Source: Gemmatimonadota bacterium DH-78 (GTDB taxonomy: Bacteria; Gemmatimonadota; Gemmatimonadetes; Longimicrobiales; Gaopeijiaceae). From it: a stretch of 64,000 bases of DNA. Shown here one piece after another: positions 5,173-23,587 of the stretch. Both the position numbers and the translations under genes were made by a program. The DNA lies in NCBI GenBank assembly GCA_038095605.1, contig CP144380.1, positions 576,815 through 640,814 of the forward strand. Reading direction: 5' to 3'. The notes under the pieces were generated by a model. The model had not been told where the DNA came from, did no database searches, and saw only the letters and a list, made by a program, of their open reading frames with translations. Each line of letters begins with the position of its first letter. Position 1 is the stretch's first letter.

Positions 5173-6975
5173 GTGCGCCTCGATCACATCCGCAACTTCT
5201 GCATCGTCGCCCACATCGACCACGGCAAGTCGACGCTGGCCGATCGGCTGCTGGAGCAGACCGCCACCCTCGACCGCCGTCAGATGCGGGAGCAGGTGCT
5301 CGACTCCAACGAGCTCGAGCGCGAGCGGGGCATCACGATCAAGCTCCACGCGGTGCGCATGGATTACCGCGCGGCCGACGGGCAGGAGTACGAGTTCAAC
5401 CTCATCGACACCCCCGGGCACGTCGACTTCACCTACGAGGTGTCGCGCTCGCTGGCGGCCTGCGAGGGAGCGATCCTGGTGGTCGACGCCACGCAGGGGA
5501 TCCAGGCGCAGACGCTGTCGAATCTGTTCCTGGCGCTCGATGCGGACCTGGAGATCATTCCGGTCCTGAACAAGATTGATCTGCCGGGTGCCGAGCCCGA
5601 GAAGCGCCGCGACGAGGTGTGCGAGCTGCTGGGCGTCGACCCCGACACGGTCATCCTGGCCAGCGCCAAGGAAGGCATCGGGGTGCCCGAGATTCTCGAG
5701 GCCGTGGTGGAGCGGGTGCCGCCCCCCGTGGGCCGGCCCGAGGCGCCTCTCCGCGCGCTGATCTTCGATTCGTACTACGACAAGTACCTGGGCGCCGTGC
5801 CCTCGGTGCGGGTGGTGGACGGCAAGCTGCGCGCGGGCCAGACGATCTCGTTCGGCGCGGTCGATGCCGAGTACGAGGTGACCGAGGTCGGTTACATGCG
5901 CATCAAGCGTGTGCCGCAGAAGGAGCTCGGCCCGGGCGAGGTGGGCTACGTGGTGGCCGCCATCAAGGAGGTCTCGCACACCCGACCCGGCGACACGATC
6001 GTCGACGTCGACCACCGCGCCGAGGAACTCCTGGACGGCTACCAGGAGGTGCGGCCCATGGTGTTCGCGGGACTCTATCCCACGGACTCCGACGATTACG
6101 AGGAACTCCGCGACGCCCTCGAGCGCCTCAAGCTCAACGACGCCTCGCTGCAGTTCGAGCCCGAGACCTCGGCGGCGCTCGGCTTCGGATTCCGCTGCGG
6201 ATTCCTGGGGCTGCTGCACATGGAGATCGTGCAGGAGCGGCTGGATCGCGAATTCGGAGTCGACCTCATCACGACCGTGCCCAACGTGGAGTACAAACTC
6301 GTACTCACCGACGGGACTCCGCTCGAGATCGAGAGCCCCACGGCGATGCCCGAGCGCGGGAAGATCGAGTCGATTGCCGAACCGATGGTTCGCGTTCGCA
6401 TCATGGTCCCGTCGGAGTACATCGGAAACGTGCAGAAGCTCGCGCACGAGCGCCGGGGCATCTTCAACGGCATGCAGTACCTCGACCGCGAGCGGGTGGA
6501 GCTCGACTACGAGCTGCCGCTCGCCGAGATCGTGCTCGACTTCTACGACCGCCTCAAGAGCGGCACGCGCGGTTACGCGGCCATGGACTACGATTTCATG
6601 GAGTACCGCAAGGCCGACCTCGTGAAGCTCGACATTCTGGTCAACGCCGATCCGGTCGACGCCTTCAGCGTGATCATCCACCGCGACAAGGCGTACGAGC
6701 ACGGCCGCAACCTCACCAAGCGCCTCAAGGACCTCATCCCGCGCCAGCAGTTCGAGGTCGCGCTGCAGGCCGCGATCGGGCAGAAGATCATCGCGCGGGA
6801 GTCGGTGAAGGCGCTGCGCAAGAACGTCACGGCCAAGTGCTACGGCGGCGATATCTCGCGGAAGCGCAAGCTTCTCGAGAAGCAGAAGGAAGGAAAGAAG
6901 CGGATGAAGCAGGTGGGATCGGTGGAGATTCCGCAGGAGGCCTTCCTCGCGGTGCTCAGTCTCGGCGACGGCTGA
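5173..6975 (+). CDS. lepA: Elongation factor 4 (LepA), back-translocating GTPase
   Basis: 600 aa, the normal length. GTPase motifs are all present: P-loop AHIDHGKST near residue 13, switch region [20 protein letters not shown], and NKIDLPGA. The LepA-specific C-terminal domain ends with [19 protein letters not shown], which binds the ribosomal A-site region. EF4 acts on stalled or mistranslocated ribosomes at the membrane/cytosol under ionic or cold stress. The start is GTG at 5173, which gives the conserved N-terminus ([17 protein letters not shown]). A glycosyltransferase gene follows after ~70 bases on the same strand. Confidence 0.98.
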
Positions 6976-7047
6976 CCGGCGACGGCTCGTGGTCCGCGTC
7001 CGACGTACCTCGATCGTTTGCGAACCACCGGCGCGCACCGACCCCCG

Positions 7048-8088
7048 ATGAAGCGCGACGGCGGCATCCTCGTCGTGGGCCCGGCCTGGGTCGGCGACAT
7101 GGTCATGTGCCAGAGCCTCTTCGTCACGCTGCGGCGGCGGCACCCCGACGCCCGCATCGACGTGCTCGCGCCCGACTGGACGCGCCCCCTGCTCGAGCGC
7201 ATGCCCGAGGTGACCGAGGCGCTCCCGCTCCAGGTCGAGCACGGCCGGCTTCGGCCCCTCGCCCAGTGGCAGGCCGTGCGCGAGGTGCGTCGCCGCGGCT
7301 ACCGGCAGGCGATCGTCACGCGGCGCTCCCTCAAGTCGGCGCTGGTGCCCTTTCTGGCCGGAATCCCCCAGCGTACCGGCATCCTCGGCGAGAACCGCCA
7401 CTGGCTCATCAACGACGTGCGCGCGGTGAACGGCGAGTCGCACCGGTGGGCGGTGGAGCGGCTGGCGGTGCTGGGCATGGAGCCCGGCGCGGCCCCGGGG
7501 CTCGACGGGGTGCCCTGGCCGAAGCTGGTGGCGAATGCGGAGGCCGGCGCGGAGGCGGAGCGACGGCTCGGGGCCGACGGTACGGGATCGGTAGTCGGTC
7601 TCGCCCCCGGCGCCGCCTACGGACCGGCTAAGCGCTGGCCGCAGGCGCACTGGGAGCAGCTCGCCGCCGCGCTCACCCGCTCGGGCCGGCGCGTCTGGGT
7701 GTTCGGCGCCGCGGGCGAGCGCGACGAGGGCGAGGCGATCGCGGCGGCCGGCGGCGCAGGGGCGACCTCGCTGTGCGGACGCACCTCGCTCGGCGAGGTG
7801 GCCGACCTCATGGCGCGGTGCGAGGCGGTGGTGAGCAACGACTCCGGGCTGATGCACGTGGCGGCCGCGGCCGGTCCCCGGGTGATCGCCCTCTTCGGCT
7901 CCACCTCGCCGGCCAACACGCCCCCCCTCGATCGGCGGGCCCGGGTGATCTATCGGGCGCTCGAGTGTAGTCCCTGCTATGCGCGAACGTGCCCGTTGGG
8001 GCATCTTCGCTGCCTGACCGAGATCACGGTGGACGAGGTGCTCGAGCATCTCGAAGAGGGGGCGCAGGCCTCCGGGGAGCGGCAATGA
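7048..8088 (+). CDS. waaF: LPS heptosyltransferase II (GT9 family)
   Basis: 346 aa. GT9 hallmarks are seen: N-terminal ILVVGPAWVGDMVMCQSL, the donor-binding region GPAKRWPQAHWEQLA, and the C-terminal SNDSGLMHVAAA with LFGSTSP. These match ADP-heptose:LPS heptosyltransferase II, which adds the second heptose to the inner core of lipopolysaccharide at the cytoplasmic face of the inner membrane. A Cys-rich end (CSPCYARTCPLG) is common in this subfamily. An upstream TTG start (7018) exists, but the ATG at 7048 fits the family better. The gene overlaps the following ROK kinase by an ATGA. It implies an LPS-bearing outer membrane. Confidence 0.9.
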   Translation: MKRDGGILVVGPAWVGDMVMCQSLFVTLRRRHPDARIDVLAPDWTRPLLERMPEVTEALPLQVEHGRLRPLAQWQAVREVRRRGYRQAIVTRRSLKSALVPFLAGIPQRTGILGENRHWLINDVRAVNGESHRWAVERLAVLGMEPGAAPGLDGVPWPKLVANAEAGAEAERRLGADGTGSVVGLAPGAAYGPAKRWPQAHWEQLAAALTRSGRRVWVFGAAGERDEGEAIAAAGGAGATSLCGRTSLGEVADLMARCEAVVSNDSGLMHVAAAAGPRVIALFGSTSPANTPPLDRRARVIYRALECSPCYARTCPLGHLRCLTEITVDEVLEHLEEGAQASGERQ

Positions 8089-15908: not shown

Positions 15909-16730
15909 ATGGACCTTCCACCCGTCCCGCGGCGGGGCGCAAGCTATGCGGTTAGCATCTCATGCGTCTCGTGGATCGACCTACTAGGCTACGGTTCGAT
16001 GCTTCGCAAAGTCGGGTTTGACCCTACCGCAGACCTTGCGAGAGACGCGGTGGAGAGAATTGAAGCGTTCCACGCCATCGTTGCGGACCACTCCAAGCGC
16101 GAGTTCAGGACGGTGGTCATGAACGATGGTGCCGTCGCCCTTCGCGACCTGAGCCCCCGTTCTCACTCCGTTACGTATGATTTTCTTGCACGGAGTATCG
16201 ATCTCTTCAACAGCGTCAACGAGAAGGATAGCGAGATCGGAGCACGGATGGTCATCGCCGCCGGGTTCCGGATGGAGACGACGGCGAGAGATCATATCTT
16301 TAGGACGTCATTGGCCCAGCGGGTCTTGGAGCAGCTCAGAATCGGTAGTCTCGACGCAGAGGAAGCCGTGCATCAGGCTCTCGTGGCGCGCCCGGACTTT
16401 CAGGGCGTTCCCGCGCTTCAAGCGAACTTTGCCTTCACTAAGGCCTACCTGGTCGAGAGCAAGGGCACCGATGGTGGATTCGGCGGCGCGAACTGCTTCA
16501 TCGACCTCGCGTTGTTCGACCAAGATCTCCCGGAGTGGATCAAGTTCTCAGAACTGCAATGCTTCCATTCCGATGGAATCTCAGGGCGATTCGGGAAGCT
16601 CAGGTCGTTTGATCGCGAGTCGGCAGGAAAGGCCCGGTTGTCAGGGGTCTTAGATGCCCTCGGGATTGCAGAGAAGATTGGTGGGGCAGGTGCCGCGCAG
16701 CGGATGCTCGATACGCGAAGACGGGCCTGA
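15909..16730 (+). CDS. Unknown protein with class III nucleotide-cyclase-like pattern
   Basis: 273 aa, first gene of the island. I do not recognise a named family. The N-terminus ISCVSWIDLLGYGSML (Asp24) and VVMNDGAVALRD (Asp73) resemble the two metal-binding Asp positions of the class III adenylate/guanylate/pyrimidine cyclase fold (F-x-D-[IL]-x-G-F, then [SN]-D-[SG]-hydrophobic), and ARMVIAAGFRM resembles the following strand. If so, it could make a cyclic nucleotide for the TIR or membrane protein downstream, as in Pycsar-type defence. The C-terminal half (FIDLALFDQDLPEWIKFSEL) has no recognised motif. The cyclase reading is inference from short motifs; a degenerate non-catalytic fold is possible. 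Confidence 0.45.
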   Translation: MDLPPVPRRGASYAVSISCVSWIDLLGYGSMLRKVGFDPTADLARDAVERIEAFHAIVADHSKREFRTVVMNDGAVALRDLSPRSHSVTYDFLARSIDLFNSVNEKDSEIGARMVIAAGFRMETTARDHIFRTSLAQRVLEQLRIGSLDAEEAVHQALVARPDFQGVPALQANFAFTKAYLVESKGTDGGFGGANCFIDLALFDQDLPEWIKFSELQCFHSDGISGRFGKLRSFDRESAGKARLSGVLDALGIAEKIGGAGAAQRMLDTRRRA

Positions 16731-16888
16731 GCGAAGCGCACGAAGGAATGTCCCGCGGAGGTCTGCCCTGGGCGGCAATGGCAGGGGGCGGGTTGCCCGG
16801 CGGTCTCGAGGGCGTTTGTACCGGGCCGCGGCAGGAGCACCTCATCGGTTATCAGAAGTGTACCTTCACCATTCGTGACCCACTGGTA

Positions 16889-17533
16889 ATGACCGCAACA
16901 GGACTCGACTCCCTTGTGGCCTGGATCCCCGGGCCCCTCACACCGGTGGTGATCGTGGTTCCCGGGTGGGTTGTCGCCGTTGTATCAGCGGGCGCGCTTG
17001 CGATCGCGATCTGGCGATGGCGGTCGCACGATTTCTGGGAGGCGGTCGAGGTTGAAGTCAATTTTGCCGACCTCGGAAAGGTCAAGATCAAGCCCAACCT
17101 GGAGGACATCCAGATCGCCCACCGTGCGTGGGTTGAACTGGCCACACGGAAGGCGGGGGTACCATTTGACCCCGAACACGATGTGATCGTTGACGTGTAC
17201 GACTCGTGGTATGATCTCTTCGGGCAGTTCCGGGAGCTCGCTTCCAGTTGTCCGGCGACAAAGATGCGGTCGCACCAAGGTACGCGGGAACTAGTCTCGA
17301 CCTTGGCAGCCGTTCTCAATCAAGGATTGCGTCCGCACCTGACCCAGTGGCAGGCCGGATTCCGGAGGTGGTATGCGTTCGCCGCTGAGGACGCTTCCCA
17401 CGATGAGAGCCCACAGCAGATCCAACGACAGTATCCGGACTACGAGGATCTGGTGGCTGACCTTCAGAGAGTGCAAGAGGGTCTGCGCCGTTACATGGAG
17501 CTGCTTAGGCAGCTTGCTACAGGAGAGCGGTAG
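16889..17533 (+). CDS. Single-TM helical protein of unknown function in TIR cassette
   Basis: About 214 aa from ATG 16889; an in-frame ATG at 16748 would add 47 unremarkable residues. An N-terminal membrane segment (about residues 16-42, VVIVVPGWVVAVVSAG) is followed by VEVNFADLGKVKIKPN and a helical, charged domain rich in Trp/Tyr (AHRAWVELATRKAG, TQWQAGFRRWYAF, QQIQRQYPDYEDLV). No enzyme motif is seen. The layout (one TM helix plus cytoplasmic helical domain) is what a membrane-disrupting effector or a membrane tether for the adjacent TIR protein would look like. I believe relatives of this protein occur beside TIR genes, but cannot confirm it here. Confidence 0.6.
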   Translation: MTATGLDSLVAWIPGPLTPVVIVVPGWVVAVVSAGALAIAIWRWRSHDFWEAVEVEVNFADLGKVKIKPNLEDIQIAHRAWVELATRKAGVPFDPEHDVIVDVYDSWYDLFGQFRELASSCPATKMRSHQGTRELVSTLAAVLNQGLRPHLTQWQAGFRRWYAFAAEDASHDESPQQIQRQYPDYEDLVADLQRVQEGLRRYMELLRQLATGER

Positions 17534-17560
17534 TCGCTGCGAGCTTTGGGGGCAAGTACG

Positions 17561-18058
17561 ATGGCCAGTGAGAAGAAGCGCCGACACGTTTTCATCAGCC
17601 ACCACCATGCCGACGATGAGCACGTTAGTAGGCTCGCCAAGCTCTTGCGTGGCGCCGGGTATGACATCCGAAACAGCTCGATTCGAGCGAAACCAGCAAA
17701 CCAGAGGCGCCTTGATCGCGGCGAAGTCAGCGACGAGACGATCCGTCGCCTCTTGCGGATGAAAATCTCTTGGGCTGGAAGGATCGTGGTATTGGTCGGA
17801 AAGGACACCCATAAGCGTCCGTGGGTCAACTGGGAGATCGAACAGGCCCACAAGCAGGGGAAGCGCATCGTGGGTGTCTACATACGCGGCGGTACGCACG
17901 CCGATGTTCCTGAGGCCTTCGAGAAATACGGATCTGCCCTTGTCGGTTGGACCTCCGCGAGCGTCATGAAGGCCATCGACGGTGAGACGAACACCTTCGA
18001 GAGGCCGGACGGGACGTCTCGAGATCCTGTCCACGAAGGTGCCTCGCTCAAGTGCTAA
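17561..18058 (+). CDS. ThsB-like TIR domain protein (MTH538 TIR-like, PF08937)
   Basis: 165 aa. The first strand and loop read HVFISHHHADDEHVSRLA (residues 9-26), the typical TIR-like opening. The predicted catalytic Glu is at residue 92 in PWVNWEIEQAHKQGK, followed by RIVGVYIRGG. This is the Thoeris ThsB type, whose members make cyclic-ADP-ribose-like signals from NAD+; others consume NAD+ directly. ATG 17561 is preferred over a TTG at 17546. It lies 28 bases after the membrane protein gene and 1 base before the Nmad2 gene. There is no ThsA-like SIR2 or macro/SLOG effector in the cassette, so it is not a canonical Thoeris locus. Confidence 0.88.
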   Translation: MASEKKRRHVFISHHHADDEHVSRLAKLLRGAGYDIRNSSIRAKPANQRRLDRGEVSDETIRRLLRMKISWAGRIVVLVGKDTHKRPWVNWEIEQAHKQGKRIVGVYIRGGTHADVPEAFEKYGSALVGWTSASVMKAIDGETNTFERPDGTSRDPVHEGASLKC

Positions 18059-18059
18059 G

Positions 18060-18704
18060 ATGGCGCAGTGTTACATCTACACGGTGGCGCGGGACTTCGG
18101 CTTCGCGCCAAACCCCTTCCATGGCACTTGTACGTTGGCGACGTGCAAGCCCGTGATACGCCGGGTTGCCGCCCCTGAAGACTGGGTGATAGGGATGGGG
18201 GGGAAGCGCATCGGTGCGTCAGGGCGAGTTGTGTTTGCAATGCAGATCTCGGAAACGCTCAGCCTTGACCAGTACTGGGCCGACCCCAGGTTCCGCGACA
18301 AGAGACCCGTGCGAAACGGCTCATCGGCTATGCTCCTCGGCGACAACATCTACCACCGCGACTCCTCCGGGAGATGGCACCAAGCTGACTCACACCATAG
18401 TCGATCCGACGGCACACCCGACCTCGACAATCTTCGTCACGATACGCAGACCAACCGCGTCCTGGTCGCATCGGAGTTCGTGTACTTTGGCCGCGCTGCC
18501 CCGATGGTGCCCAGTGACATTCTGGCCACGATGGGGTACGCAAACGGTCGCGGTCACCGCAAGTTCACGATGGAAAAGGCCGGAGCTCTTCTCGATTGGC
18601 TAAGATCGAGTTTTTCCGGGTCCTTTGGTACTGTGGTGGATGACCCATTTGAGTTTGAGCAACCAGGGCAACGCTATTCCCACAGCAGGAACCGCATTCT
18701 ATGA
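18060..18704 (+). CDS. Nucleotide modification associated domain 2 (Nmad2) protein
   Basis: 214 aa. The N-terminus CYIYTVARDFGFAPNPFHG, then TLATCKPVIRR, GDNIYHRD, DSHHSRSDGTP and GRGHRKF, match the Nmad2 family as I know it. The Nmad domains were predicted computationally from gene neighbourhoods with DNA-base hypermodification enzymes. No biochemical activity is established that I can cite. The ATG follows the TIR gene stop after a single base, so the two are one transcript. Its pairing with the next two genes supports a role in sensing or handling modified nucleotides or DNA. Confidence 0.8.
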   Translation: MAQCYIYTVARDFGFAPNPFHGTCTLATCKPVIRRVAAPEDWVIGMGGKRIGASGRVVFAMQISETLSLDQYWADPRFRDKRPVRNGSSAMLLGDNIYHRDSSGRWHQADSHHSRSDGTPDLDNLRHDTQTNRVLVASEFVYFGRAAPMVPSDILATMGYANGRGHRKFTMEKAGALLDWLRSSFSGSFGTVVDDPFEFEQPGQRYSHSRNRIL

Positions 18705-18726
18705 CAATCCATGCGCGGAGGACCGA

Positions 18727-19743
18727 GTGAGCCGTGGGGGAGGGCGACTGGGTGACCTCGCTCCTACGCCGGTGTTCGACAGCTATTGGCGGTTCGCCGC
18801 ACGACGCCAGGAGGTCTACCTCGCCCGACTTCGCGGCACTGCGGCGCCCTGGACCCCAGATCCGATCCTCGGCGCGTATCGGTTTACAAATGCCTATAGG
18901 GCGGCCGATCGAGTGAGTCAATATCTGATCAGAAACGTGATTTATCAGACGGCCGTGCCTCTGTCGGATGAGGACCTCGTCTTTCGGATTCTTCTCTTCA
19001 AGATATTTAACCGTATCGAGACCTGGGAGCTCCTTCGGTCGGCCCTTGGCCCGCTAACGTGGCGGAGCTTTAGCTACGAGCGATACGATACGGCGCTGAC
19101 AGAAGCGATGGCCTCGGGCAGGTCAATCTATTCCGGCGCCTACATCATGCCATCCGTTCGAGCGTTTGGTCACCCACGGAAGCACCGGAATCACCTACTG
19201 CTCATCGAGCGCATGATGCGCGACGGATTGGCGAATACCGTGGCCTCGGCACAGGGGATGCGGGACGTGTATGCTAGCCTCCTTGCCTACCCATCGATCG
19301 GGCCATTTCTCGCCTATCAGTTCGCCGTCGATATCAACTACAGCGAGTTGACTGATTTCTCCGAGAACGACTTCGTAGTGGCAGGTCCCGGTGCAAAAGA
19401 TGGGATCCGAAAGGCCTTCCGAGACGCGGACCGGTATGACGATGCCGACACTATACGCTTCACCACTGACCTCCAGGGCGAAGAGTTCGCTCGACGTGGA
19501 ATCGAATTTCCCAATCTCTTCGGCCGCCCCCTTCAACTCATCGACTGCCAGAATCTCTTCTGCGAGGTCTCAAAGTACGCCAGGGTGAGACACCCGAATG
19601 TGACGGGCGTGTCTGGGCGGACGAGAATCAAACAACGTTTCACCGCCAAAGGGCGCCTTCCATTGCCGTGGTTCCCTCCCAAGTGGGGGATCAACGACAA
19701 GGCCTCAACCTTCCTCAAGCATGAGAGTGGCGGATGGAACTAG
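18727..19743 (+). CDS. 5-hmdU DNA kinase helical domain-like protein
   Basis: 338 aa from GTG 18727, chosen because GGAGGA lies 4 bases upstream; earlier in-frame starts lack it. Conserved blocks: YRFTNAYRAADRVSQYLIR, LFKIFNRIETWELL, YSGAYIMPS, KHRNHLLL, YPSIGPFLAYQFAVDINYS and VVAGPGAKDGI. These match the helical family named for 5-hydroxymethyl-uracil DNA kinase, also called α-glutamyl/putrescinyl thymine pyrophosphorylase-related, found in phages that hypermodify thymine and in bacterial conflict loci. The helix-rich fold resembles DNA glycosylases. It might recognise or act on modified thymine in phage DNA (inference). It overlaps the MazG gene by 10 bases. Confidence 0.8.
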   Translation: MSRGGGRLGDLAPTPVFDSYWRFAARRQEVYLARLRGTAAPWTPDPILGAYRFTNAYRAADRVSQYLIRNVIYQTAVPLSDEDLVFRILLFKIFNRIETWELLRSALGPLTWRSFSYERYDTALTEAMASGRSIYSGAYIMPSVRAFGHPRKHRNHLLLIERMMRDGLANTVASAQGMRDVYASLLAYPSIGPFLAYQFAVDINYSELTDFSENDFVVAGPGAKDGIRKAFRDADRYDDADTIRFTTDLQGEEFARRGIEFPNLFGRPLQLIDCQNLFCEVSKYARVRHPNVTGVSGRTRIKQRFTAKGRLPLPWFPPKWGINDKASTFLKHESGGWN

Positions 19744-20612
19744 ATGAGTACCAAGTACACGCGTTGCGGACAGATCAGACTGCCGCGAACGCCACAGCCA
19801 AGACCATCGTGCCACTTCTCGGATTGGCCGGCGAGGTAGGGGAGCTCCTCAGCGAGTACAAGAAGCACCTTCGCGACGGCGCAGCTCACCGATTGTTCAC
19901 GGCTAAAGTGCGAGAGGAGTTGGGCGACATACTATGGTACGTGGCGACGGTCAGTAGCCGTTTCGGTCTCTCGCTTGAGGACGTCGCCGCGGGCAATCTC
20001 AGCAAGTGTGCGGATACATGGGCCACGGGTGATATACAAGAGTCCGTGGTGGGGCGCTTCGACGAGACCTTCCCTCCGGAGGAGAGGTTTCCAAGGAAGT
20101 TCGTCATCAACTTCGAGGAGGGCCTTGAAGGAGACATCGTGCGGGTACGAGCTTCCTGTGATGGGCGACAGATGGGCCAGACGCTCACGGATAACTCGCA
20201 TGAGGACGATGGCTACCGCTTTCACGATGTCTTCCATCTCGCGTTGGTCGCGGGCCTTGGATGGAGTCCCGTTACCCGTCGCAATCTCGAGCTCAAGCGC
20301 CGAAGTGATCCCGAAACCGACGAGGTGGAGGACGGAGGTAGAGCAATAGTGATCGAGGAGGGCATATCCGCCCTCATATTCAGCTACGCGCTTGAGCACG
20401 ACTGGCTGCGTGGGGTTGCGCGAGTGGACCACGACTTGCTTAAGGTCGTCAGGAAGATGACCGGGCACCTGGAGGTGGCTGAGTGCTCTCTCGCGGAGTG
20501 GGAGGCGACTATTTTGATGGCCTACCCCGTTTGGTGGGAGCTCTATCAGAGTAGGAGCGGGAGCGTTGAAGTTAACCTCGAACAGCGATCGCTACGATTC
20601 TTGGAGACCTGA
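19734..20612 (+). CDS. MazG nucleotide pyrophosphohydrolase with C-terminal extension
   Basis: 292 aa. Residues ~25-75 hold the MazG all-α NTP-PPase site: GEVGE (Glu34, Glu37) and REELGDILWY (Glu62, Asp65), i.e. the ExxE...ExxD Mg2+ motif. Residues ~110-290 form a second domain (FHDVFHLALVAGLGWSPVTR, GISALIFSYALEHDWL, KMTGHLEVAECSLAEWE) of the kind called the MazG C-terminal domain. MazG enzymes hydrolyse NTPs or dNTPs to monophosphate and PPi. Here it could remove non-canonical dNTPs needed for phage DNA modification or deplete nucleotides. Last gene of the island. Confidence 0.82.
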   Translation: MELDEYQVHALRTDQTAANATAKTIVPLLGLAGEVGELLSEYKKHLRDGAAHRLFTAKVREELGDILWYVATVSSRFGLSLEDVAAGNLSKCADTWATGDIQESVVGRFDETFPPEERFPRKFVINFEEGLEGDIVRVRASCDGRQMGQTLTDNSHEDDGYRFHDVFHLALVAGLGWSPVTRRNLELKRRSDPETDEVEDGGRAIVIEEGISALIFSYALEHDWLRGVARVDHDLLKVVRKMTGHLEVAECSLAEWEATILMAYPVWWELYQSRSGSVEVNLEQRSLRFLET

Positions 20613-23122: not shown

Positions 23123-23251
23123 CTATCCGAACGGCTCGGCACCCGCGGACTGGGCGGCGGCGGCGAGCCGGGTGTCCAGGGTTGCGATCGGAATGCCCAA
23201 CCGTAGAGCCAACTCGAGGTAGGAGGCGTCGTACGAACTCAGGGCGTGTGT
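23123..23251 (-). pseudogene. C-terminal remnant of a VapC-type PIN toxin
   Basis: The minus-strand frame ending at TAG 23125-23123 reads THALSSYDASYLELALRL, then GIPIATLDTRLAAAAQSAG. This is the conserved end of PIN-domain VapC toxins (YDAxYLELA, LDxxL). Only ~42 residues remain of the ~130 expected; the metal-binding N-terminal part (DxSxxxxxL) is missing. The remnant starts inside the 3' end of the Phd-type antitoxin gene, so a deletion seems to have joined the two. Confidence 0.75.
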
Positions 23252-23487
23252 CGCCCCTCGTCGATCAGGTCACGGACACTGAGGCCCGGCCCGAGCGTCC
23301 GGCCCTTCGCGAAGTCGCGCAGCTCGGCCACGGCCGCGGCAGCGTCGACGGTGCCGACCGCACCGCTGGGTACGAGTTCAGCGATGGGCACGCCGTGTCG
23401 CGTGATCGTGATTCGCTCGCCCTTCTCGACCCGTCGCAGGAGAGCCGAAAGGTGGGTCTTGGCCTCGTATGCTCCTACGGAATGCAT
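23239..23487 (-). CDS. Phd/YefM family antitoxin (orphan)
   Basis: 82 aa. SVGAYEAKTHLSALLRRVEK and GERITITRHGVPIAELVP are the classical Phd/YefM fold signature: DNA-binding N-terminal half, toxin-binding C-terminal part ending RDLIDEGRHTP. The ATG at 23487 has GAGG 6 bases upstream; an ATG two codons earlier is the alternative. Its toxin, presumably VapC, survives only as a C-terminal remnant at 23123-23251, so this antitoxin has no intact local partner. Confidence 0.88.
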   Translation of the reverse strand: MHSVGAYEAKTHLSALLRRVEKGERITITRHGVPIAELVPSGAVGTVDAAAAVAELRDFAKGRTLGPGLSVRDLIDEGRHTP

Positions 23488-23587
23488 GACCATCCTCGCC
23501 CTGGATCGAGACAGCAGCTCGTTCGGACCAGTCTAGCACTGGTCTATTTCGGTGGCCACTGCGAGGGCGGTTCCCGGAAGCAGCGCC

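What the first reader, a model, noticed from the sequence alone, without database searches (positions are those of the whole stretch)
15909..20612. Six-gene island combining a cyclase-like protein, a TM protein, a ThsB-like TIR, Nmad2, a 5-hmdU-kinase-helical protein and MazG: candidate new defence system
All six genes are co-directional, with 1-base spacing or overlap at several junctions, and stand out as A/T-richer in a very GC-rich chromosome. TIR-like ThsB proteins are established in Thoeris immunity. Nmad2, the HMUDK helical family and MazG are known from gene neighbourhoods of DNA base hypermodification and conflict. I know of no named system with all these parts. It could detect phages with hypermodified thymine, sanitise or deplete modified nucleotides, and trigger a TIR/NAD-dependent abortive response. 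The combination is seen in sequence; the function is inference.
Basis: partly seen in the sequence, partly recalled or inferred. Interest (0 to 1): 0.92.

Follow-up and report, generated by a model that had tools for sequence, protein, structure and literature searches.

The report
TIR–base-reader immune gene cassette
A small, mobile group of bacterial genes pairs an immune-signalling protein with a probable reader of unusual DNA letters and with enzymes that handle such letters; it looks like an anti-virus alarm, and the tight, recurring pairing at its core was not found described in the papers searched.

Summary
Four of six domain calls are strong (ThsB-type TIR, Nmad2, HMUDK_hel, MazG+MazG_C); gene 2 has one predicted membrane helix; "cyclase" for gene 1 has no profile support. 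The exact six-gene set did not recur.

Two units do. (i) A TIR gene directly precedes Nmad2 in 36 of 45 Nmad2 loci (19 of the 28 not found through HMUDK), a TIR-like remnant in 2, none in 7. TIR and Nmad2 distances correlate (r=0.77; TIR–HMUDK 0.19). (ii) All 38 paired loci have HMUDK, MazG_C or a uracil-DNA glycosylase nearby, in sets swapped repeatedly on the Nmad2 tree; HMUDK and the glycosylase were never seen together.

All 39 partner proteins carry a cysteine within the last five residues, against 1 of 37 other TIR-like ORFs there (but 3 of 5 in later-fetched loci). Nmad2's predicted fold resembles ASCH/YTH/EVE readers (borderline). Gene 2's domain recurs near TIR genes and on patatin-like proteins; three loci carry ThsA.

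Best reading: a modular defence locus in which Nmad2 gates a Thoeris-like TIR alarm. Defence, sensing and ligand are inferred. Parts were predicted earlier; E. coli systems with 5hmdU-kinase and thymidylate-synthase domains are defensive (PMC13092281).

The parts
15909..16730 (+). g1, 273 aa, unknown family ('cyclase-like' unproven); probably not part of the core
   Evidence: No family over cut-off; relatives on 7 of 72,556 plasmid records at 41-49% identity; four were fetched: two beside ABC-3C genes, one beside AbiEii, one near a reverse-transcriptase gene, none with TIR-Nmad2 hits
16889..17533 (+). g2, 214 aa from ATG 16889 (an upstream start at 16748 is possible): one predicted membrane helix plus a helical domain that recurs near TIR genes; candidate effector
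   Evidence: Hydrophobic segment residues 17-35; related domain membrane-linked (L044, L074, L108), free-standing (L040, L025, L075) and at the N-terminus of long patatin-like proteins (L088 by Pfam, L092 by similarity); a TIR or TIR-like gene adjacent or within ~1.6 kb in the 5 further plasmid loci fetched (Calothrix by eye)
17561..18058 (+). g3, ThsB-type TIR, 165 aa, with a WxxxE motif (recalled as the TIR active site)
   Evidence: PF08937 2.9e-21, PADLOC ThsB 2.2e-55, PDB relatives include ThsB1 9b7d 8.8e-05
18053..18055 (+). Codon of the conserved C-terminal cysteine of g3 (last residue)
   Evidence: Cys within the last 5 residues in 39 of 39 Nmad2 partners, encoded TGC 29 / TGT 10
18060..18704 (+). 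g4, Nmad2, 214 aa; predicted PUA-like (ASCH/YTH/EVE) fold
   Evidence: PF18753 7.6e-71; model mean pLDDT 89.1; Foldseek best hits ASCH 5y6b E 1.3e-3, prob 0.99, then YTH and EVE-type chains
18727..19743 (+). g5, HMUDK_hel ('5-hmdU DNA kinase, helical domain'), 338 aa from GTG 18727; no P-loop kinase domain here
   Evidence: PF18723 2e-107; model pLDDT 92.3; Foldseek: SP10 5-hmdU DNA kinase 3.7e-14, weak HhH DNA-glycosylase hits
19734..20612 (+). g6, MazG nucleotide pyrophosphohydrolase domain + MazG_C
   Evidence: PF18722 2.7e-73, PF03819 5.9e-07

Best explanation
A horizontally moving, modular anti-phage locus with three exchangeable units. (1) Alarm: the TIR protein and Nmad2 form one co-inherited unit. 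Nmad2 is a PUA-like reader of a non-canonical pyrimidine (in phage DNA, or released from it), and binding releases or assembles the TIR, which makes an NAD-derived signal as ThsB does. The conserved C-terminal cysteine tail of the TIR is the likely contact or switch to Nmad2. (2) Substrate arm: HMUDK_hel+MazG_C here, HMUDK+thymidylate synthase or MazG_C+uracil-DNA glycosylase elsewhere. It keeps unusual deoxyuridine/thymidine nucleotides out of the host pool (MazG_C) and acts on such bases in foreign DNA (HMUDK_hel or glycosylase). (3) Effector: here g2, whose TIR-neighbour domain is anchored in the membrane; elsewhere ThsA, SLOG-TIR or a patatin-like protein. Shown: the pairing, the swaps, the tail and the families. 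Inferred: defence, ligand, signal, and g2 as the killer.
For: Profiles. TIR profile hit directly upstream of Nmad2 in 36 of 45 Nmad2 loci, 19 of 28 among those not fetched through HMUDK. The reciprocal plasmid search with the TIR hit 13 records, 11 of them Nmad2 records. Mirror-tree r on 30 of the 38 paired loci: TIR-Nmad2 0.77; on those that have the gene: TIR-HMUDK 0.19 (n=22), TIR-MazG 0.42 (n=11), HMUDK-MazG 0.55 (n=11). A nucleotide gene within 9 kb in 38 of 38 paired loci; in 20 of 20 paired loci not fetched through HMUDK (window left out) against 0 of 7 unpaired ones (Fisher 1.1e-6, counting the two remnant-type loci as paired). HMUDK/UDG: 0 of 20 carry both. At least 4-5 forced changes for each of the three configurations on the Nmad2 tree. 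C-terminal Cys 39 of 39 against 1 of 37. ThsA beside the pair in L035, L041, L098. Nmad2 in 0 of 50,697 phage records; HMUDK-type in 480, at 40.2% identity or less in the 30 rows shown. HMUDK in 1 of 395 and Nmad2 in 6 of 395 genomes of the phylum, the window's included. Precedents: E. coli systems with 5hmdUk and TS domains (PMC13092281); Brig1/Brig3 glycosylases (PMC13160076, passages).
Against: No experiment on a TIR-Nmad2 locus was found. The partner of four UDG-bearing loci (L099, L109, L112, L113) lacks the catalytic Glu (present in 35 of 39), so TIR catalysis is not universal. The Cys tail is not unique: 3 of 5 TIR or TIR-like proteins read later (L148, L155, L151) also have a Cys within the last five residues. 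Nmad2-HMUDK distances correlate too (r=0.45, n=22), so the units are not cleanly separate. The window has no SLOG effector, and STALD was not found in its genome (the same search rang in G398, one of three genomes). g2 hits lie near TIR-Nmad2 in 7 of 38 paired loci at the threshold. The PUA-like match is borderline (E 1.3e-3; TM 0.36 by query). The HhH match is weak (E 0.21) and a profile comparison with the genome's own glycosylases was not significant. 7 of 45 Nmad2 loci have neither TIR nor a nucleotide gene, and they do not form one clade.
Confidence: 0.5

Rival explanations
1. Host self-marking: the HMUDK/TS/MazG enzymes hypermodify the cell's own DNA or nucleotides, and Nmad2-TIR punishes unmarked or wrongly marked DNA, like a restriction-modification pair with an alarm.
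For: The TS-bearing loci hold much of a phage-style route (TS, thymidylate kinase fused to HMUDK in some, DCD in some); HMUDK_hel resembles phage hypermodification enzymes.
Against: The window has no TS hit and no kinase domain; the 12 MazG_C+UDG loci keep TIR-Nmad2 with no HMUDK, TS or DCD hit, one (L088) with a thymidylate-kinase hit.
Confidence: 0.15
2. Poison or bait nucleotide: the module makes or keeps an unusual dNTP that phage polymerases incorporate; MazG_C protects the host and Nmad2-TIR detects the marked phage DNA.
For: TS+kinase+DCD sets could make one; a TS domain occurs in a validated E. coli defence system (PMC13092281).
Against: The window's set has no obvious producer; UDG loci point to removal instead.
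Confidence: 0.15
3. The TIR is mainly a scaffold: Nmad2 with its tail-bearing partner regulates the nucleotide enzymes, and NAD chemistry is secondary.
For: The cysteine tail is kept (39 of 39) where the Glu is not (35 of 39).
Against: Most members, the window's included, keep the Glu; ThsA or SLOG proteins lie nearby in several loci.
Confidence: 0.12
4. A defence island of independent genes with no common function.
For: True of g1 as far as tested; neighbours vary from locus to locus.
Against: TIR-Nmad2 adjacency, matched divergence and the constant presence of a nucleotide gene.
Confidence: 0.08

Closest known systems
Thoeris (ThsB TIR + ThsA)
   Same: TIR of the ThsB family with WxxxE; three relatives of the cassette carry ThsA
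   Different: An extra Nmad2 partner, a C-terminal cysteine tail, a nucleotide module; no STALD-type ThsA found in this genome
DefensePredictor systems with 5hmdUk, TS, dNMPk and NMAD domains, and predicted aGPT-Pplase/MazG/MazG-C/NMAD/UDG systems (PMC13092281)
   Same: Same kinds of nucleotide-module domains; defence validated for systems with the 5hmdUk and TS domains
   Different: The main text does not mention TIR or Thoeris; figures and supplements could not be seen, so which genes are drawn together is unknown to me
Phage thymidine-hypermodification enzymes (5-hmdU DNA kinase of SP10, Pplase1)
   Same: HMUDK_hel fold
   Different: Nmad2 absent from the phage collection; no kinase, TS or transferase hit in the window cassette
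Brig1/Brig3 anti-phage DNA glycosylases (PMC13160076, passages)
   Same: Uracil-DNA-glycosylase superfamily used against modified phage DNA; a UDG stands in place of HMUDK in 13 of 38 paired loci
   Different: The window has no UDG hit; HMUDK_hel is not shown to be a glycosylase
EVE-type (PUA superfamily) sensors in modification-dependent restriction enzymes (VcaM4I, start of abstract of PMC7897488; PMC7641849, passages)
   Same: PUA-like modified-base sensor coupled to an effector; Nmad2's predicted fold is similar
   Different: Here the partner is a TIR, not a nuclease; Nmad2 is a separate Pfam family and its ligand is unknown

Membership tests
Thoeris | ThsB-family TIR protein | tested here: met
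   PF08937 2.9e-21; PADLOC PDLC00418 2.2e-55
Thoeris | ThsA effector (SIR2-STALD) in the locus or genome | tested here: not met
   Not in the cassette; STALD 0 of 1 own genome. Positive control: 1 of 3 genomes searched rang (G398, holding L041); a fourth, of L035, is not held. Macro-type ThsA was not searched for. In relatives: L035 and L098 by PADLOC, L041 by phmmer and STALD
Thoeris | Catalytic glutamate of the TIR (position recalled from TIR literature) | tested here: met
   WVNWE in the window; Glu in 35 of 39 partners
Thoeris | Cyclic ADPR-type signal and NAD depletion on infection | not testable with these tools
   Needs biochemistry
Phage-type thymidine hypermodification pathway | HMUDK helical domain | tested here: met
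   PF18723 2e-107; Foldseek to SP10 kinase 3.7e-14
Phage-type thymidine hypermodification pathway | P-loop nucleotide kinase domain on the HMUDK protein | tested here: not met
   Only HMUDK_hel found in g5; the L009 relative has Thymidylate_kin PF02223 fused
Phage-type thymidine hypermodification pathway | TS-like enzyme making the modified nucleotide | tested here: not met
   No TS hit within 9 kb of Nmad2 in the window; TS in 10 of the 37 other paired loci
DefensePredictor 5hmdUk/TS/dNMPk/NMAD type | 5hmdUk-type protein plus NMAD domain | tested here: inconclusive
   HMUDK_hel and Nmad2 present, but which NMAD family that study means, and whether these domains form one unit, is not in the text read
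DNA glycosylase (HhH-GPD) | HhH-GPD fold or profile match in g5 | tested here: inconclusive
   No Pfam HhH-GPD hit; Foldseek 2h56 E 0.21, prob 0.75; hhalign not significant
PUA-like modified-base readers | PUA-like fold in Nmad2 | tested here: inconclusive
   First 8 hits ASCH, then many YTH and a few EVE-type chains; best E 1.3e-3, prob 0.99, TM 0.36/0.50; none at E 0.001 or less
PUA-like modified-base readers | Binding of a modified base | not testable with these tools
   No ligand data

The most novel reading that the evidence does not exclude
A new class of TIR immunity in which a PUA-like reader (Nmad2) of non-canonical thymine/uracil directly gates its TIR partner through a conserved C-terminal cysteine tail. 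Interchangeable pyrimidine-processing enzymes create or expose that ligand in phage DNA: a nucleic-acid-modification sensor wired to NAD signalling, with exchangeable membrane, SIR2, lipase or TIR effectors.
Probability: 0.3. Interest if true: 0.88.

Novelty: new variant of a known kind. Interest (0 to 1): 0.64.

Why it matters
How bacterial TIR proteins recognise infection is known in few cases (for example capsid sensing by a staphylococcal Thoeris, PMC12578639, and SpbK with phage protein YonE, PMC12847820; starts of abstracts in the listing). Here the probable sensor is encoded as a steady, co-diverging partner, so the question becomes testable with two small proteins and a panel of modified DNAs. 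It would also explain why phage-type thymine-modification enzymes recur on bacterial plasmids and chromosomes beside immune genes. The cysteine tail gives a sharp mutational test.

Tried and rejected
Rejected: the six genes as one fixed operon (g1 in no other Nmad2 locus; the gene content varies). Rejected: phage origin of the whole set (Nmad2 in 0 of 50,697 phage records; 6 viral-contig loci, of which 5 are paired cassettes like those of bacteria). Rejected: the C-terminal Cys as a by-product of overlapping start signals; it is encoded TGC 29 / TGT 10 at offsets 0, 1, 2 and 4 with different downstream letters. Tried without result: PDB sequence relatives for g1, Nmad2 and HMUDK (none convincing); profile comparison of HMUDK_hel with two of the genome's own HhH glycosylases (one search was run with a faulty option, one search repeated it; neither significant; the third locus gave no ORF by my motif); the ASCH family in the own genome (none); an Acinetobacter relative (its HMUDK gene is annotated in two pieces and no TIR is annotated in the fetched stretch).

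Limits: 'paired' means that a TIR or TIR-like remnant lies directly upstream of Nmad2; it is not a clade. 17 of the 38 paired loci were fetched through HMUDK, so their HMUDK content is by construction; tests on swaps use 20 others (window left out). L094/L110 are identical and L100/L101 near-identical in Nmad2; without one of each the HMUDK/UDG exclusion test gives p=7e-4. Fisher tests ignore shared descent. Seven Nmad2 loci without TIR (L102, L103, L114, L129-L132) were left out of the pair and tail counts; two of them (L131, L132) are cut about 0.5-1 kb beyond Nmad2. In L109 and L112 the upstream ORF matches no TIR profile; its kinship rests on place, size and tail. Several cassettes are cut by contig ends. 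The mirror test left out 8 of 38 paired loci (L024, L099, L100, L101, L109, L110, L112, L113). The Nmad2 tree left out L024 (truncated) and has 15 of 40 inner branches well supported.


Full report
What is there. Six + strand ORFs lie at 15909-20612, at 59.3% GC between flanks of 71.2% and 68.7%. Profiles support four of the calls well over Pfam's cut-offs: ThsB_TIR, Nmad2, HMUDK_hel, MazG+MazG_C. PADLOC has models only for the TIR (ThsB, 2.2e-55), none for the others. g2 has one hydrophobic helix and no family over cut-off. g1 has no family; by eye it has cyclase-like patches, but no profile supports that. Two congeners match the window collinearly up to the gene ending at ~15.7 kb and in place again from ~37.9 kb, with other sequence between; pieces of the stretch right of the island match elsewhere in those genomes. 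HMUDK_hel was found in 1 of 395 and Nmad2 in 6 of 395 genomes of the phylum, the window's own included, which fits acquisition by transfer.

Recurrence. A scan of genome contigs with g5 found 142 relatives, of which 80 loci were kept, at 51-60% identity in many phyla. Of the 80, 51 had a match to g6 and 17 had TIR and Nmad2, always both. Nmad2 was then sought on its own: 16 of 72,556 plasmid records, 0 of 50,697 phage records, 6 viral-contig loci and 6 of 395 genomes of the phylum. Together with the 17 this makes 45 loci, 28 of them not fetched through HMUDK (window included). A TIR profile hit lies directly upstream of Nmad2 on the same strand in 36 of the 45 and in 19 of the 28. In 2 (L109, L112) the place is taken by a same-size ORF with the same tail but no profile hit. 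In 7 (L102, L103, L114, L129-L132) there is neither a TIR nor an HMUDK, MazG or UDG hit; on the tree these seven are not one clade. I call the 38 'paired'. Searching plasmids with the TIR instead gave 13 records, 11 of which are Nmad2 plasmids; the other two are the weakest hits, and one of these is a haloarchaeal plasmid whose TIR gene lies about 2 kb from an HMUDK gene. Of 22 plasmid records with HMUDK, 5 are TIR-Nmad2 records, so HMUDK also lives without the pair.

The pair is a unit. Distance matrices of TIR and Nmad2 correlate at 0.77 over 30 of the 38 paired loci (0.72 in the 22 with HMUDK). TIR against HMUDK gives 0.19 (22 loci), Nmad2 against HMUDK 0.45 (22), TIR against MazG 0.42 (11), Nmad2 against MazG 0.28 (11), HMUDK against MazG 0.55 (11). 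So TIR and Nmad2 are tied most closely, and the nucleotide enzymes are partly a unit of their own; the separation is not absolute.

The nucleotide module is constant in theme, variable in content. Within 9 kb of Nmad2 in the 38 loci: HMUDK+thymidylate synthase in 9, that plus MazG in 1, HMUDK+MazG (the window's type) in 11, MazG+UDG in 12, other or cut in 5. Each of the 5 still has at least one of HMUDK, MazG or UDG. TS, DCD and the fused thymidylate kinase were confirmed by Pfam on one example each. In the 20 paired loci that were not fetched through HMUDK and are not the window, 6 have HMUDK, 13 UDG, 1 neither and 0 both (p=1.8e-4; 7e-4 without near-copies). On the Nmad2 tree the labels need 18 changes (least possible 4); well-supported branches force at least 4 for the UDG type, 4 for the TS type and 5 for the HMUDK-MazG type. 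The module has thus been swapped repeatedly beside the same pair. The five-gene content of the window without g1 recurs in 3 of the 37 other paired loci: L025, L040, L074.

A cysteine tail. The ORF directly upstream of Nmad2 was taken by position, not by similarity, in the 38 paired loci. In 39 of 39 pairs (L088 has two; one spurious fragment in L092 dropped) there is a Cys within the last five residues, in 25 as the last one. Of 37 other TIR-like ORFs in the loci held by then, 1 has this. Against a clean contrast: of five TIR or TIR-like proteins read later in other loci, three (L148 archaeal, L155 Streptomyces, L151 Calothrix) also have a Cys within the last five residues. Codons in the 39 are TGC 29 and TGT 10, with offsets 0, 1, 2 and 4 from the end, so the constraint is on the protein. 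The TIR's catalytic Glu is kept in 35 of 39; the exceptions L099, L109, L112 and L113 all carry UDG. The tail is therefore more constant than the active site. Its role is unknown; contact with Nmad2 is my inference.

Folds. The Nmad2 model (pLDDT 89.1) matches ASCH chains first (5y6b, E 1.3e-3, prob 0.99, TM 0.36/0.50), then many YTH chains and a few that are EVE-type (THYN1 by its title; two structural-genomics entries by recall). This is one superfamily of nucleic-acid binders, several of which read modified bases; the match is borderline, with no hit at E 0.001 or less. The HMUDK_hel model (pLDDT 92.3) matches phage 5-hmdU DNA kinases and Pplase1 clearly, amino acid:DNA transferases weakly and, very weakly, HhH DNA glycosylases (2h56 E 0.21). 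A profile test against two of the genome's own glycosylases put the local alignments on the helix-hairpin-helix but was not significant. The exchange with UDG and the weak fold signal point the same way without proving it.

Effectors. ThsA lies directly downstream of Nmad2 in L035, in the run TIR-Nmad2-second TIR-ThsA in L041, and behind MazG-UDG in L098 (L035 and L098 by PADLOC; L041 by phmmer and STALD). Other loci have TIR-SLOG proteins (PF18163), SLOG cluster 3 proteins (PF18180) or patatin-like proteins, each confirmed by Pfam on one example. The domain of g2 recurs membrane-linked (L044, L074, L108), free-standing (L025, L040, L075) and as the N-terminus of long patatin-like proteins (L088, L092). 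In the five further plasmid loci fetched for this domain a TIR gene lies close by: adjacent in Photobacterium and S. cynarae, about 0.3 kb away in Vibrio, about 1.6 kb away with a transposase between in S. longwoodensis, and in Calothrix an adjacent protein whose N-terminus looks TIR-like by eye. So g2 is probably an effector or effector adaptor, by association only. STALD-type ThsA was not found in the own genome; the same family search rang in 1 of 3 other genomes.

Mechanism. I think it most likely that Nmad2 senses a non-canonical pyrimidine and licenses its TIR partner to signal, with g2 acting at the membrane, while HMUDK_hel and MazG_C deal with such bases in DNA and in the pool. Steps shown: genes, families, pairing, swaps, tail. 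Steps inferred: ligand, signal, killing, defence. Support from experiment elsewhere: DefensePredictor validated E. coli systems containing 5hmdUk and TS domains (PMC13092281, sections 5 and 15) and predicted aGPT-Pplase/MazG/MazG-C/NMAD/UDG systems (section 8; legend); Brig1 and Brig3 show that UDG-superfamily enzymes can restrict phages by excising modified bases (PMC13160076, passages).

Novelty. The words TIR and Thoeris do not occur in the main text of PMC13092281. The rows shown by paper searches listed no paper whose title or shown abstract start describes a TIR-Nmad2 pair or its cysteine tail; several lists were cut (one search showed 20 of 457, 20 of 274, 20 of 38, 15 of 21, 15 of 32, 8 of 9). 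I file it as a new variant of a known kind: works like Thoeris, but is not filed as Thoeris in this genome because the ThsA test was not met.

Noticed in passing
L104-L107 (plasmids), match at about 6001-6800: Relatives of g1 lie in rhizobial and sphingomonad plasmid regions, two beside ABC-3C genes, one beside AbiEii, each with a small hypothetical gene just upstream; possibly a separate two-gene system.
   Followed up: partly
L148:4416-4886 (-) and 6965-7981 (+), Natronomonas gomsonensis plasmid: A haloarchaeal TIR gene with a cysteine close to its C-terminus lies about 2 kb from an HMUDK gene; no Nmad2 hit was seen in the plasmid search.
   Followed up: partly
L108:2718-7483, Aureispira plasmid: Four TIR genes in a row end in a g2-type membrane protein, with CRISPR cas genes nearby; the last TIR has a Cys next to its C-terminus.
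   Followed up: no
L001-L080, loci without TIR-Nmad2: 63 of the 80 HMUDK loci lack TIR-Nmad2; in 51 of the 63 a MazG or TS hit lies within 5 kb of HMUDK, so the nucleotide module also stands alone.
   Followed up: partly
L035:7312-7896: In some Bacteroidota loci the MazG_C gene is short (about 195 aa) and appears to lack the MazG domain, so MazG_C rather than MazG may be the constant part; read from the sequence, not profiled.
   Followed up: no
window 18727-19743: PHROG phrog_800, labelled terminase small subunit, matches g5 at 5.8e-08; the label or the family looks mixed.
   Followed up: no
window 23239-23493 (-): A short ORF looks like a Phd/YefM-type antitoxin by eye.
   Followed up: no
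L050 and L080: Two HMUDK genes in one neighbourhood, one scoring much lower than the other (actinobacteria).
   Followed up: no
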